NCBI GenBank assembly: GCA_024860865.1
Contig: JACRDV010000018.1
Location: 1 to 8,701, forward strand
DNA from: JACRDV01 sp024860865 [NCBI: Methanobacteriota archaeon]
GTDB lineage: Archaea; JACRDV01
Direction of reading: 5' to 3'
DNA: 8,701 nucleotides
Positions 179 through 6,381 of the stretch are shown piece by piece (positions within the stretch are counted from its first letter, which is position 1; every line of letters begins with the position of its first letter). The notes beneath the pieces were generated by a model that searched no databases, was not told the origin of the DNA, and saw only the letters and a program-made list of their open reading frames with translations. Both the position numbers and the translations under genes were made by a program.

Positions 179-430
179 ATGAAGTATGACATCCATAAGA
201 TGCCGGTGAAGATAAAGATGCATGCCTCGCAGAGGATTGCAGAGCGAATCAATGGTACGATGGACATAGAAGAGAAGGTATACTTTGTTCGGCGTTTAAT
301 AAAAGAGGGCAAGGTTATCAAAGACATCCGCAAGGATGGCGAGGTAGGCATAATTAAGAAAGGCAAATATCGAGCAAAGTTCACAGTTCGAGAAGGCATT
401 TTGTGGGTTCTAACGATCGAGGAGGGATGA
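179..430 (+). CDS. DUF4258-like toxin of a type II toxin-antitoxin pair
   Basis: Small basic protein of 83 residues. The order of elements is that of DUF4258, a RelE/BECR-like fold family close to MqsR: a helix beginning at His15 with Arg19 and Arg23 (HASQRIAERI), a second helix at about residues 29-42, a GKVIKDIR strand, a strand run ending in KYRAKFTV, and a final ILWVLTI strand. RelE-like relatives cut mRNA. That activity is inferred here and no catalytic residues can be assigned with certainty. ATG 179 is used; ATG 200 (MPVK) is possible but has no better ribosome site. The stop overlaps the next frame at ATGA 427-430, so the two genes are translationally linked. Toxin-first order matches mqsRA-type modules. 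The family call is by pattern, not by search. Confidence 0.65.
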   Translation: MKYDIHKMPVKIKMHASQRIAERINGTMDIEEKVYFVRRLIKEGKVIKDIRKDGEVGIIKKGKYRAKFTVREGILWVLTIEEG

Positions 431-432
431 AT

Positions 433-750
433 ATGAAGTGCCCGACTTGTAATGCTGATATGGTAAAAAGACAGATTGAGTGGAAGAAAGGTATCTATGT
501 TCGAGCAGATGTCTGCCCCAAATGTAAGGAGGAGTTCATCGATTTGGAAGAGCACGAGAGAGCTATGCGAGAGTACACGACGCAGAATATTACAAAACTA
601 AAGAGAAATGTCATAAAACTCGGCTCCTCGCTTGCGATAAGGATACCGAAGGATATTGAAACTTCGTTGGGCTTGAAAGAGAAGGATTCTGTCGAAATAT
701 TCAGCACGCGAGAGGGTATCGTTATTAAGCCGAAAAAAGTTAGAGTTTAG
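433..750 (+). CDS. antitoxin: YgiT-type zinc finger fused to AbrB/MazE-like DNA-binding domain
   Basis: 105 residues from ATG 433. Residues 1-40 form a YgiT/MqsA-type zinc finger with CPTC at 3-6 and CPKC at 28-31, separated by a basic strand. Residues 58-103 match the swapped-hairpin SpoVT/AbrB (MazE) fold: KRNVIKLGSSLAIRIPKDI, then LGLKEKDSVEIF and a closing GIVIKPKK strand. The zinc finger is expected to bind the toxin and the AbrB part to bind the operator. Canonical MqsA has a C-terminal helix-turn-helix instead. ATG 433 was chosen because GGAGGG at 421-426 ends six bases before it. An in-frame ATG at 427 abuts that sequence and is too close. The start lies three bases past the toxin stop. 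Confidence 0.75.
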   Translation: MKCPTCNADMVKRQIEWKKGIYVRADVCPKCKEEFIDLEEHERAMREYTTQNITKLKRNVIKLGSSLAIRIPKDIETSLGLKEKDSVEIFSTREGIVIKPKKVRV

Positions 751-833
751 AGGGGCAGGGCTTCTTGAATATCATGGATTGCGTTCATATCCCACGGATT
801 TATTAATAAAAGATTAAAAACCTCTGGGCTATG

Positions 834-878
834 TGGAGTCTTCTTCTCCAAGGCTTTGTACCATCTTGCTCAAAGCCT
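834..878 (-). terminator. two adjacent hairpins at the fdhD 3' end
   Basis: Two inverted repeats lie back to back between the converging antitoxin gene and fdhD: AGGCTTTG (851-858) with CAAAGCCT (871-878), loop 12 nt, and TGGAG (834-838) with CTCCA (846-850), loop 7 nt. Read leftward they start 11 bases after the fdhD stop and are followed by GGTTTTTAATCTTTT, so a terminator or RNA 3'-end stabiliser for fdhD is the simplest view. The remaining 751-833 stretch contains no gene that I can see. Confidence 0.4.
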
Positions 879-889
879 ATTCATTGGGT

Positions 890-3052: not shown

Positions 3053-3056
3053 ATAC

Positions 3057-3092
3057 TCACCTTTTTAACCCGTTAACAAAGTTACTTATAAA
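3057..3092 (-). promoter_or_regulatory. promoter, operator candidate and RBS of the cytochrome gene
   Basis: Leftward, TTTATAAG (3092-3085) is a near-consensus archaeal TATA box. It predicts a transcript start near 3062-3066 and a leader of about 10 bases that is mostly the GGTGA ribosome site (3061-3057). Between the two lies an inverted repeat TTAAC-CC-GTTAA (3065-3076) over the expected start site, a possible repressor site. Confidence 0.55.
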
Positions 3093-3521
3093 TATGACGA
3101 ATTTAAAGTCGATTTTGGTCGGAGACAAACAGCATCTGATTGAAAAATTCATTTAAGATTTTTATTTTTTTATTTTTATTTTATTACTTAGTTCTTGGTT
3201 CCAACATGCTTTGAAAAAATAGAAACAAGTTGTAGCTTGGCTTGTAGAATGAATCCTTAATTCACATTTTTGATATAGTTTTGAAAATTGTTATTCTTAA
3301 AAAGGAATAATATTATTTTCTAAAAAGTTACACAAGAAAATTGTTTAGCACTAAAGAAAAAACTAATTTTGTGGCAATATATTTAGGTTATTAAATCACC
3401 AAAAAAACGGCTATTTCCGTGAATACGCTCGTAAGCAAAAATAATATTTGCCACTAATATCACAATTAAAAAGTGATAAATTGTAAATTTTGTCACTATA
3501 TTAATTTAAAAAAGGATAAAA
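3093..3521. other. long AT-rich divergent intergenic region, no gene seen
   Basis: This stretch separates the leftward cytochrome gene from the rightward TrmB-type regulator. I find no frame with a credible start and family pattern. It contains a T-rich run on the plus strand (about 3159-3186), a small ACGG/CCGT hairpin (3407-3420), and several CAC-type half-sites near its right end, listed separately. The length and the clustered motifs suggest regulation of one or both flanking genes. Confidence 0.5.
3371..3498 (+). promoter_or_regulatory. clustered TTGYCAC / TATCAC half-sites before the trmB-like gene
   Basis: An inverted pair TATCAC (3458-3463), nine bases, GTGATA (3473-3478) uses the half-site sequences known for the Thermococcus TrmB-family site TATCAC-N5-GTGATA, but with a wider spacer. 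Around it, TTTGCCACTA (3447-3456) and TTTGTCACTA (3489-3498) are direct repeats 42 bp apart, about four helical turns, and GTGGCAATAT (3371-3380) is an inverted copy of the first. The pattern suits a regulator binding its own promoter in several places. Core promoter position is unclear: GATAAATT (3475-3482) or TATATTAA (3497-3504). Confidence 0.5.
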
Positions 3522-4340
3522 GTGTTTAATTCAGAAGCTGTGAAGGCACTAAAAGAATTCGGACTTACTGAATATGAAGCAAAAGCTCTGATTGGTTTAG
3601 CAAGGGGTAACTCTCACTCAGCTAGCGATCTAAGCGAATTCTCAGCAGTTCCCCGCTCTAAAATTTATGAAGCTTTAAGCAAGCTTGAAGCAAGAGGTTT
3701 GTTGGAAACCCAAAATGGCAGACCTAAAAAATTTAGAATTGTTTCTTTCGACATGGTTATTCAGAAATTAAAAGAAGAAAGAATTAAACAACTTAAAGAG
3801 AAATACTCTCGAGAAAAAATTGAACTCGAAGAAAATTATAATAAAAAAATGCATTCGCTATCTAATTCAGAAACAATAATTTCTCAAGAATTAAAAACAC
3901 AACCAACAGAAGATAATAAAGTAAAGCTGTCGGATGAAGAAGCAATTTGGACATTAAAAGGCAGAGAAAATATACTGGAGCAAATCAAAAAATTGATTGG
4001 ACAAACAAGTCGCGAAATCCGAATTATGCTTCCTATTAAAGAAATTTTTGAACTTAAAGATTCTTTAAAATCGATTTCAACTGATGGGATTAGACCGAAA
4101 ATAATAGTTCATGAAATTTCAGATAATATAAAAGAACTTCTAAAATTTTGTGATGTTTGGCATGAAAAAAAGGCTCCTTTGAGCTGTGGCTTAATTATCA
4201 TAGATAACGAAGAATTGATTTTTGTAAGCGAATTATTTGAAACGGGCTTTAGAACTAAAAGCAAGAGTACCCTTTCTATGCTCTCGCACTTTTTTGATCA
4301 TGAATGGAAGGAAGCTAATCAATTAGTATATTATTTTTAA
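3522..4340 (+). CDS. TrmB-family transcriptional regulator
   Basis: 272 residues. Residues 5-73 are a TrmB-type winged helix: ALKEFGLTEYEAKALIGLARG, a recognition region SAVPRSKIYEALSKLEARGLLE, and a wing ending KKFRIV. Residues 76-115 are rich in K, E and R in a heptad-like pattern and should form a coiled-coil dimer arm. Residues 140-272 are a C-terminal effector domain of the PLD-like kind seen in TrmB relatives without a sugar domain (AIWTLKGRENILEQIKKLIG, then EIRIMLPI). Archaeal members control sugar, energy and redox genes; the signal here is unknown. The start is GTG 3522 with a weak GGAT site 4 bases upstream. It is divergent from the cytochrome gene, so autoregulation and cytochrome control are both plausible. 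Confidence 0.88.
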   Translation: MFNSEAVKALKEFGLTEYEAKALIGLARGNSHSASDLSEFSAVPRSKIYEALSKLEARGLLETQNGRPKKFRIVSFDMVIQKLKEERIKQLKEKYSREKIELEENYNKKMHSLSNSETIISQELKTQPTEDNKVKLSDEEAIWTLKGRENILEQIKKLIGQTSREIRIMLPIKEIFELKDSLKSISTDGIRPKIIVHEISDNIKELLKFCDVWHEKKAPLSCGLIIIDNEELIFVSELFETGFRTKSKSTLSMLSHFFDHEWKEANQLVYYF

Positions 4341-4363
4341 CCATTTATTAGAATTTCTTGTGA

Positions 4364-4371
4364 TTATAAAA
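4364..4371 (+). promoter_or_regulatory. TATA box before the candidate RNA locus
   Basis: TTATAAAA lies in an A-rich stretch just after the trmB-like stop. It predicts a rightward transcript start near 4388-4395, where the composition changes from AT-rich to GC-rich. No protein gene follows, so it may drive the structured RNA described at 4390-4800. Confidence 0.4.
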
Positions 4372-4389
4372 AAATTATTAAAAAACTTT

Positions 4390-4640
4390 CCAGCTGCTTA
4401 TTAGGTCGCATTCCTCACGGGTGCCTCTTCTTCCTGTGGTAGGCTGTAGGATTTTTGCTCGCTTACCCTGCCGACCTGCGCGGGTTTTGTTAACCCCCAG
4501 AGTGGCTTTTTGCGGAACACCTCTAGCCTCTTGGGGTCAAAAAAAGGAAAAAGAGGGGAGATTTTCTTTCAATCCTCACTTTTCGAGGCACGATTCTTTC
4601 GGAGGGCTTATTATCAGCCGATCCGAGGTCTAATTGCTTT
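4390..4640 (+). ncRNA. candidate structured non-coding RNA, GC-rich block
   Basis: This gap between converging genes is clearly richer in G+C than its AT-rich flanks. Rightward pairings seen by eye: an enclosing 11-position stem with one mismatch, CCTCTTCTTCC (4424-4434) with GGAAAAAGAGG (4546-4556); inside it CCCCCAGAG (4494-4502) with CTCTTGGGG (4528-4536), one mismatch; a competing GGGTT (4482-4486) with AACCC (4492-4496); an alternative long-range GTGCCTC (4421-4427) with GAGGCAC (4585-4591); and a hairpin TTTCGGA (4597-4603) with TCCGAGG (4622-4628), inner GGCT/AGCC. The competing stems may be chance or a switch. I do not recognise RNase P RNA (no GAGGAAAGTC), SRP RNA, tRNA or rRNA. A non-ATG frame crosses it but has no ribosome site. 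It may form one transcript with the tandem repeat after it. Confidence 0.45.
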
Positions 4641-4644
4641 GGTT

Positions 4645-4721
4645 TGTACACAAAAGTTAGGGCCACTTATGTCGTTTTAACGGTGTGGGTGACCCACCGA
4701 AGCGTACATTTTATGTTACAG
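4645..4721 (+). repeat. tandem RNA-like repeat, copy 1
   Basis: First of two 78-nt-spaced copies. It starts TGTACACAAAA and ends TTTATGTTACAG, both shared with copy 2, with TTTAACG shared in the middle. Plus-strand folding: outer TGTAC (4645-4649) with GTACA (4704-4708); central stem of 12 positions 4660-4671 with 4684-4695, one C/A mismatch and four G-T wobbles. An alternative outer pairing joins 4645-4655 to 4709-4720 with one bulge and one mismatch. The wobbles would be A/C mismatches on the other strand, so the rightward strand is the likely RNA. Confidence 0.6.
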
Positions 4722-4722
4722 G

Positions 4723-4795
4723 AGTACACAAAAATTAGTCGCTTACAGTTTAACGATGTAGGCGACCTATCCCGAGGCTGTACTTTATGTTACAG
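4723..4795 (+). repeat. tandem RNA-like repeat, copy 2
   Basis: Second copy. Central stem GTCGCTTACA (4738-4747) with TGTAGGCGAC (4757-4766): ten pairs including one wobble, loop GTTTAACGA. Outer stem AGTAC (4723-4727) with GTACT (4780-4784). Relative to copy 1 the outer T-A pair is A-T, an inner A-T pair is G-C, and the other stem differences all keep or restore pairing. TTTTT at 4803-4807 follows and could end a rightward transcript. Confidence 0.6.
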
Positions 4796-4832
4796 CAAGA
4801 AATTTTTGATTGCAGGCCAAATTCAATAATTT

Positions 4833-5279
4833 TTACCCAAAAACCCTTGTTAAATCAAATTTGTTTTTAAATGTTAAGGCTTTGGTTGGACATAGACCCA
4901 CACATTTGGCACAAGAAATGCATTTTTTTCTGTCAAATTCCACGCTACCAAATCCGAGCAATCCATTCGGGACTTCTACAATTCCTTCTAATTTACTTAT
5001 AGCAAGCTCTTGGATAAATTTGTATATCAACGCAATTTTTTCTGGAGTTTCTTCGTTTATGTTCAAGATGCTGGATAAATCAAACTCTCTTTTATGTAAA
5101 TAAGCTTCTGATGGACAAGCCTCAACGCATTGCAGACAGACCGTACACTTCCTTTTCTCATATTCGATTTCCCCAAATCCATAAATGTTGGCAGGAACCG
5201 AAATAAGCTCCTTAGACTCTTTTACTGCCACTTTTTTTATTAAGTCGAACAATATTTCTCTGTTCCATTTTTTTTCCAT
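4833..5279 (-). CDS. two-cluster 4Fe-4S ferredoxin built from an internal duplication
   Basis: 148 residues from ATG 5279. Two bacterial-ferredoxin-type motifs: Cys45-48-51 with Cys55 (CTVCLQCVEACP) and Cys120-123-126 with Cys130 (CISCAKCVGLCP), each expected to hold a [4Fe-4S] cluster. Residues 24-71 and 98-147 are copies of one unit: a VPxxxxGFGxxE lead, the cysteine motif and a KxxFDL tail, joined by a helical linker at 75-97. Soluble, with no signal or membrane segment. As last gene of the hdrA-mvhD-frhB operon it probably carries electrons for that complex. ATG 5279 begins four bases after the frhB-like stop, with GTGA just upstream. The frame extends to 5321, but that part overlaps frhB's end and looks like shadow sequence. 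Confidence 0.87.
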   Translation of the reverse strand: MEKKWNREILFDLIKKVAVKESKELISVPANIYGFGEIEYEKRKCTVCLQCVEACPSEAYLHKREFDLSSILNINEETPEKIALIYKFIQELAISKLEGIVEVPNGLLGFGSVEFDRKKCISCAKCVGLCPTKALTFKNKFDLTRVFG

Positions 5280-5283
5280 TTTA

Positions 5284-6381
5284 TCACTTAACTGCTTTAG
5301 GTGGAAGAGGAAGCTTTTCATTTTTTCTTCGTTTTATTTCATCAGTTGCTCTATCTCTCTTGTTAATAACAAGCTTTTTAACAGGACCGAAACTAACAGC
5401 TTCTTCTATTTGTACGTAACCTTTCTCTATTGCATTTTTTAGCAATTCTTCTCCAACTTGAGATCTTACTATTGCTGTTGACCAACCAGCAGGAGTACCC
5501 ACTGAACCGACTGATATGTCTGCCAACTCCGCAGAAAAATCAGTACAAACAAGGCAGTGCTCGGGAACGAATCTTTTTACTTCACTCAATGGTATTTCGA
5601 TTTTCTCAGTAGATTCAATTAGAAATTTTCCTTTCTTTATATCCATTTTTTTAACTTTTTTTAGATCCAACCTGGATCCAAAATATTCCACTAATTTCTC
5701 ATATGAAAATGCTTCCATGCAAAATAATCCAACTGTGATTATCTCAAGTTGCTTAACATTCAACAGGCCTTTTTGAAGCTTTCGAACTCCATTTATTTGG
5801 CATGGTGTACCCACAATAGCGATTTTTCTTAATTTTAGTTCTCTAATTGTTTTTCCAAGATTTTGCACAGTGTGGCTTGCCCAATATTTTGTTCCTGCTG
5901 CATTTATTAGGTCCTCAATCGAAGTTACAACCTTTGGTATCGACCTCCATCTTTCATCTTTATCTACGGCCAAAACGCCTTCTATTCTGCCGCTTTCAAG
6001 AGCAGCGCATAGAATAGAAGTTACAGCACCACCATCCTGTGCTTTTTGTAATATCGCTTCCTTTGTTGCTCTTAGCGGGACCACTTTTCTATAGAAGCCT
6101 AAGCTCTCATCGCCGCGTTCTCCAAACACATCCTCAGAGCTAAGAGCTGTTGTCACTGGACAATGATCATAACAAGTTCCATTTTTACTACATTCTAGTG
6201 CTCCTTCATCCAAAACACATTCACTGATCTTCTTGGGTTGTCCGTTAAATCCTAAATTCTTACAAAAAGCAACACATGCTCCACAACGAGTGCAAAAACC
6301 GGGGTCTATAACCTCTGCTTTTAATTCGTCAAAACCTAAGCTCTTCCTTTTTAAGCTGATGTGCCTAATGAGCTGTTGCAC
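5284..6381 (-). CDS. F420-dependent FrhB/FdhB-like iron-sulfur flavoprotein subunit
   Basis: 365 residues of the coenzyme F420 hydrogenase/dehydrogenase beta family. These carry FAD and Fe-S and move electrons between F420 and a partner. Residues 30-40 give CTRCGACVAFC, a [4Fe-4S] site, followed by more cysteines at 55, 64, 70 and 74. The FrhB N domain shows QDGGAVTSILCAALESGRIEG (115-135). The C domain shows IAIVGTPCQINGVRKLQ (187-203), GLFCMEAFSYEKL (218-230) and CLVCTDFSAELADISVG (276-292), ending GWSTAIVRSQVGEELL. Frh, FdhB, Fpo-F-like and glutamate-synthase-linked members look alike, so the exact partner comes from context: HdrA and MvhD upstream. Start is GTG 6381, the only start before the domain, with GAGGAG at 6395-6390 eight bases upstream. 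It overlaps the mvhD end by 17 bases. Confidence 0.88.
   Translation of the reverse strand: MQQLIRHISLKRKSLGFDELKAEVIDPGFCTRCGACVAFCKNLGFNGQPKKISECVLDEGALECSKNGTCYDHCPVTTALSSEDVFGERGDESLGFYRKVVPLRATKEAILQKAQDGGAVTSILCAALESGRIEGVLAVDKDERWRSIPKVVTSIEDLINAAGTKYWASHTVQNLGKTIRELKLRKIAIVGTPCQINGVRKLQKGLLNVKQLEIITVGLFCMEAFSYEKLVEYFGSRLDLKKVKKMDIKKGKFLIESTEKIEIPLSEVKRFVPEHCLVCTDFSAELADISVGSVGTPAGWSTAIVRSQVGEELLKNAIEKGYVQIEEAVSFGPVKKLVINKRDRATDEIKRRKNEKLPLPPKAVK

What the first reader, a model, noticed from the sequence alone, without database searches (positions are those of the whole stretch)
4645..4795. Tandem structured RNA motif with pairing-preserving changes between copies
Two copies 78 nt apart share their ends (GTACACAAAA, TTTATGTTACAG) and TTTAACG, but differ in the stems. 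In the central stem, A4665-T4690 becomes G4741-C4763, the wobbles T4668-G4687, T4670-G4685 and G4671-T4684 become T-A, C-G and A-T, and the C4663/A4692 mismatch becomes T-A. The outer TGTAC/GTACA becomes AGTAC/GTACT. Nearly every stem difference keeps or restores pairing, and the wobbles make sense only on the plus strand. This is how a duplicated functional RNA evolves. I know of no named archaeal RNA family with this layout.
Basis: partly seen in the sequence, partly recalled or inferred. Interest (0 to 1): 0.68.

Follow-up and report, generated by a model that had tools for sequence, protein, structure and literature searches.

The report
Duplicated hairpin element, unproven archaeal RNA
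A stretch of about 75 bases that can fold into hairpins occurs twice in a row between two archaeal genes; the duplication is real, but the evidence that it is a working RNA is weak because no further copy was found.

Summary
The covariation argument is weaker than claimed. Ten comparable pairs of the central helix hold six substitutions, all transitions; one pair changed on both sides, and the outer helix adds one more. Random transitions keep pairing this well in 11-34% of simulations. On the unguided alignment the plus-strand consensus fold is unremarkable (202 of 2000 shuffles as good) and the minus-strand one better (15 of 2000), so the strand is open. U1 prefers a rival fold that U2 does not. 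A covariance model matched 1 of 394 archaeal genomes, the window's own, with only these two copies. That genome is the only one held of its phylum, so absence elsewhere tells little. No Rfam family matches; the H/ACA spacing rule fails. For an RNA: the intergenic region has 42.5% GC, against 22-25% in two other gaps, but a fourth gap has 41.7%. Best reading: lineage-restricted structured RNA candidate, unproven.

The parts
4341..4832 (.). Long intergenic region between the TrmB-like gene (3522-4340, +) and the ferredoxin gene (4833-5321, -), convergent
   Evidence: GC 42.5% against 22.2% (1658-1783), 24.5% (3053-3521) and 41.7% (751-889) in three other gaps
4645..4721 (+). Copy U1 of the tandem element
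4723..4795 (+). Copy U2 of the tandem element
   Evidence: strand not proven
4661..4694 (+).
4738..4766 (+).
4669..4709 (+). U1 rival hairpin (S2), within the minimum-energy fold of U1 (-23.0 against -19.6 kcal/mol for S1)
4744..4782 (+). U2 counterpart of S2; all 15 pairs can form, but at only -5.9 kcal/mol (-12.3 with its lower helix alone) against -21.8 for the free fold
4646..4655 (.). Conserved 5' end of U1, imperfect inverted repeat with 4709-4719
   Evidence: weak, shuffle P 0.034 in U1 and 0.145 in U2
4364..4372 (+). TATA-like TTATAAAAA, about 25 nt before the GC-raised part begins; a possible archaeal promoter, by eye only
   Evidence: sequence read directly; inference, not tested

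Best explanation
A lineage-restricted structured noncoding RNA, or the end of one, that holds a tandemly duplicated hairpin module of about 75 nt. Proposed working: a transcript, most simply from the TATA-like site at 4364-4372 on the plus strand to the T run at 4803-4807, carries two hairpins whose conserved single-stranded or closing ends (GTACACAAAA, TTTATGTTACAG) are bound by one protein or partner, while the stems drift. Shown: the duplication, the possible helices, the raised GC. Inferred: transcription, strand, partner binding and any function.
For: Homologous copies. Intergenic GC of 42.5% against 22-25% in two other gaps of the contig; long GC-raised gaps in AT-rich bacterial genomes are enriched for structured RNAs (PMC8632094, passages seen). 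Folding better than shuffles: U2 on plus z -2.73, 2 of 200; region 4388-4800 z -2.05 on plus and -3.19 on minus; 4726-4825 on plus ranks 8 of 345 windows and 4651-4750 on minus 3 of 345. With alignments fitted to a structure by hand, consensus folds beat nearly every shuffle: S1 plus 1 of 500, S1 minus 1 of 500, S2 plus 1 of 500, S2 minus 0 of 500, but those alignments lean towards structure.
Against: No homologue by covariance model beyond the own genome (1 of 394 genomes; no third copy at E up to 10; 0 of 23). Unguided alignment: plus strand 202 of 2000 shuffles as good. Pairing retention in the central helix is not unusual for transitions. U1 and U2 do not share one clearly best fold. U1 alone on plus is ordinary (z -1.53, 15 of 200), and much of 4351-4600 folds no better than shuffles. 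A fourth gap, 751-889, is equally GC-raised, so GC alone is no proof. No transcript data.
Confidence: 0.4

Rival explanations
1. A neutral, decaying tandem duplication: a stretch with some hairpin potential was doubled once and both copies drift; the pairing that remains is inherited and not selected.
For: Transitions alone keep this much pairing in 11-34% of simulations; no copy elsewhere; U1 and U2 have different best folds; plus-strand unguided consensus fold unremarkable.
Against: Three blocks (15 nt at 93%, 19 nt at 84%, 12 nt at 100%) stay alike while the parts between diverge, which looks uneven for pure drift; raised GC; minus-strand unguided fold 15 of 2000.
Confidence: 0.27
2. Minus-strand 3' untranslated hairpins of the hdr gene cluster, or a two-way terminator between convergent genes: the ferredoxin stop lies at 4833, 37 bases from the edge of U2, so transcripts of that cluster would run into U2 and U1 and end or be stabilised there.
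For: Position and orientation; minus-strand consensus fold on the unguided alignment beats plus (15 against 202 of 2000); conserved ends pair fully on minus, 10 of 10 and 9 of 9, against 9 of 10 and 8 of 9 on plus.
Against: The consensus terminator scan gave no minus-strand terminator in 4300-4900; its 4 terminator-like sites are on plus, at 4408-4606, outside the copies. Archaeal terminators are not covered by that scan.
Confidence: 0.2
3. A DNA-level element: two copies of a small imperfect palindrome with TGT...ACA-like ends, the remains of a non-autonomous mobile element or a single-stranded DNA hairpin site.
For: The conserved ends form an imperfect inverted repeat in both copies. The conserved parts are the ends plus one inner block.
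Against: The inverted repeat is weak: shuffle P 0.034 (U1) and 0.145 (U2). No third copy in 1.54 Mb by BLAST or covariance model, though assemblies lose repeats. No hit in plasmid or phage collections. No mobile-element gene was recognised among the ten window proteins scanned.
Confidence: 0.13

Closest known systems
Archaeal H/ACA guide RNAs (tandem hairpins each ending in an ACA box)
   Same: Tandem hairpins of about 75 nt, each followed by a conserved ACA (4718, 4792).
   Different: ACA lies 23 and 25 nt from the closing base of the upper stem, not 14-16 (PMC4652768, passages seen); no kink-turn recognised by eye; the ACA boxes shared by both copies gave no fold in a scan that required the spacing.
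Structured RNA candidates found from long, GC-rich intergenic regions (GC-IGR approach, PMC8632094)
   Same: Long gap with raised GC and predicted hairpins.
   Different: Those candidates rest on homologues in several genomes; here none was found.
CRISPR direct repeats (RF01360, CRISPR-DR47)
   Same: A CRISPR-repeat-like stretch lies next door at 4566-4600, minus (19.5 bits, below the cut-off of 39), and a unit of 73-78 nt is in the range of a repeat plus spacer (recalled).
   Different: U1 and U2 do not contain that stretch, and their shared blocks span the unit rather than alternate with unrelated spacers.

Membership tests
Archaeal H/ACA guide RNA | ANA/ACA box 14-16 nt from the base pair that closes the pocket in the upper stem | tested here: not met
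In a looser scan of 4300-4840 four other ACA boxes fit by chance-like folds (plus 4517, 4728; minus 4647, 4490; mean 1.6 in 40 mononucleotide shuffles), none of them the ACA shared by the copies.
Archaeal H/ACA guide RNA | Kink-turn or kink-loop with sheared G-A pairs in the upper stem | tested here: inconclusive
   Read by eye only; none seen in the loops of either copy.
Archaeal box C/D guide RNA | C box (RUGANGA as searched) followed by a D box (CUGA) 30-90 nt on | tested here: not met
   The exact-pattern scan of 4300-4840, both strands, printed no match; degenerate boxes were not tried.
Any family of Rfam 15 | Match at the gathering score | tested here: not met
   0 in the whole window; at E up to 5 in 4330-4850 only two sub-threshold matches, both outside U1 and U2.
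Conserved structured RNA (general) | Homologues with significant covariation | tested here: not met
   No homologue by covariance model; only two copies to compare, with 2 two-sided changes of 16 pairs.
Conserved structured RNA (general) | Defined transcript | not testable with these tools
   No expression data.
Mobile-element ends / MITE | Further copies in the genome with terminal inverted repeats and target-site duplications | tested here: not met
   No third copy; inverted repeat weak; target-site duplications not tested.

The most novel reading that the evidence does not exclude
A structured RNA class confined to an archaeal phylum of which one genome is held, built of tandem modules that each can switch between two mutually exclusive hairpins (S1 and S2), both kept in potential by paired changes between the copies. 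In S2 I count five pairs changed on both sides, from the pair lists.
Probability: 0.12. Interest if true: 0.65.

Novelty: new member of a known kind. Interest (0 to 1): 0.27.

Why it matters
If real, it would be an orphan structured RNA of a barely sampled archaeal phylum, next to an hdr (heterodisulfide-reductase-type) gene cluster, and a reminder that such RNAs cannot be recognised by homology until sister genomes are sequenced. As it stands it mainly shows how easily transitions and G-U pairs in two copies mimic covariation.

Tried and rejected
H/ACA and C/D guide RNA: spacing rule not met, no C/D boxes. Rfam families: none; tRNA: none. Archaeal RNase P or SRP RNA hidden in the region: SRP RNA lies on another contig; RNase P RNA was not found anywhere in the genome by two models, and no RNase P family matched the region at E up to 5. 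Coding origin: two short frames over the region gave no Pfam match, and the copies differ in spacing by lengths that shift the frame.

Distant copies: the 19-nt exact match in G034 (E 0.0059, one of 60 other genomes) lies beside an unrelated frame and gives only 18.7 bits with the model (E 0.077); I take it as chance. The paired-ends pattern gave 2 unrelated Clostridia stretches and 4 viral stretches, three of them one phage type and one other; the reversed control gave 0, so chance is likely but not proven. They reach 18.6-22.8 bits against 86.8 for U1, and the two phage alignments that I compared by eye match only at the ends. A looser pattern added one more viral stretch, the 19-mer one, the inner block none.

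Synteny: the TrmB protein found no relative in genome contigs. The ferredoxin matched 8 of 394 genomes, own included; I looked at 3 of the 7 others, and none shows a TrmB match or a comparable gap. BLAST of the region in plasmids and phages: no match. Literature: four searches and passages of two papers; nothing on this element was noticed, which is no proof of absence from print.

Full report
Setting. The window is a whole contig of an archaeal draft genome (1.54 Mb, 160 contigs, 92% complete). It is the only genome held of its phylum (searched 1 genome at phylum level), and the 60 other genomes listed are all related only at the level of the domain. The gap 4341-4832 lies between a TrmB-like regulator on plus (PF01978, E 3.2e-18) and a ferredoxin on minus, followed by FrhB/FdhB-like, MvhD-like (FlpD) and HdrA-like genes (the name HdrA is mine, the Pfam hits are its domains).

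The observation. U1 and U2 share 15, 19 and 12 nt blocks in the same order, and their local alignment score of 34 exceeds the best of 2000 shuffles, 16. The duplication is certain.

How strong is the covariation? In ten comparable pairs of the central helix there are six substitutions, all transitions; one pair (A-T to G-C) changed on both sides, the others on one side. Since G-U pairs tolerate transitions, random placement of six transitions keeps at least as many pairs in 34% (from U2) or 11% (from U1) of simulations; if half the changes were transversions, 3.5% and 0.4%. The outer helix adds one two-sided change. This is not convincing evidence of selection for the helix.

Folds. Singly, U1 on plus is ordinary (z -1.53, 15 of 200 shuffles), U2 is better (z -2.73, 2 of 200); on minus both are intermediate (z -2.16, 6 of 200, and -1.71, 9 of 200). 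On the unguided MAFFT alignment the consensus fold scores -6.6 on plus (202 of 2000 shuffles as good) and -10.4 on minus (15 of 2000). On hand alignments fitted to S1 or S2, all four consensus folds beat at least 499 of 500 shuffles, the best being S2 on minus (z -4.98); these are biased by the fitting. U1 prefers a rival hairpin S2 (-23.0 against -19.6 kcal/mol), U2 prefers S1 (-21.8 against -5.9 with both S2 helices or -12.3 with the lower one). S1 is therefore the fold that both can form at low energy on plus, but it is not the best of U1. The strand remains open: the S1 central helix favours plus, the pairing of the conserved ends favours minus.

Context. The gap has 42.5% GC, against 22.2% and 24.5% in two other gaps, while a fourth, 751-889, has 41.7%. 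Among 345 windows of 100 nt per strand, 4726-4825 ranks 8th on plus and 4651-4750 3rd on minus, but coding regions hold lower values, and most of 4351-4600 is ordinary. The whole of 4388-4800 has z -2.05 on plus (2 of 100) and -3.19 on minus (0 of 100). A TATA-like TTATAAAAA lies at 4364-4372 (read); no promoter model for archaea was run.

Relatives. A covariance model of the two copies found only these copies: 1 of 394 genomes (stricter filters), no third place in the own genome at E up to 10, and 0 of 23 genomes of the phylum of G217 (overlap was not counted). The tool itself warns that an empty answer shows nothing without a known positive outside. The only other signals, a 19-nt match in G034 and a few pattern hits in Clostridia and phages, are best read as chance. 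Protein-guided searches gave no comparable gap.

Known kinds. No Rfam match. H/ACA is the nearest by look, tandem hairpins with ACA, but the spacing is 23 and 25 nt rather than 14-16 (passages of PMC4652768). Box C/D was not found by exact pattern.

Verdict. A real tandem duplication with hairpin potential in a GC-raised gap; a lineage-restricted structured RNA is the likeliest single reading (0.40), ahead of neutral duplication (0.27), minus-strand UTR or terminator hairpins (0.20) and a DNA element (0.13).

Noticed in passing
window 4566-4600 (-), L002 1505-1526 and 1578-1599, L003 331-352: Solitary CRISPR-repeat-like stretches ending in GAGGATTGAAAG or close to it: four places in the own genome by pattern with up to 3 mismatches (reversed control 0), two of them 73 bases apart on contig C65.
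   Followed up: partly
whole own genome: No RNase P RNA was found with RF00373 or RF00010 at E up to 10, while SRP RNA was found clearly (157 bits). The genome is 92% complete, so it may be missing, or divergent.
   Followed up: partly
window 751-889: Another GC-raised gap (41.7%); the lowest minus-strand folding z of the window (-3.7) is at 851-950 next to it. Rfam at E up to 5 in 740-1000 gave one sub-threshold match only.
   Followed up: partly
window about 4541-4556; L027 about 1830-1845: The string AAAAAAAGGAAAAAGA occurs in the gap and also between the SRP RNA and what looks like a following tRNA gene (read; the tRNA is by eye).
   Followed up: no
window 403-750: A MazE-type antitoxin domain behind a weakly matching zinc-ribbon start (PF04014, E 1e-13), preceded by a small overlapping frame at 179-430 that may be a toxin partner (not searched).
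   Followed up: no
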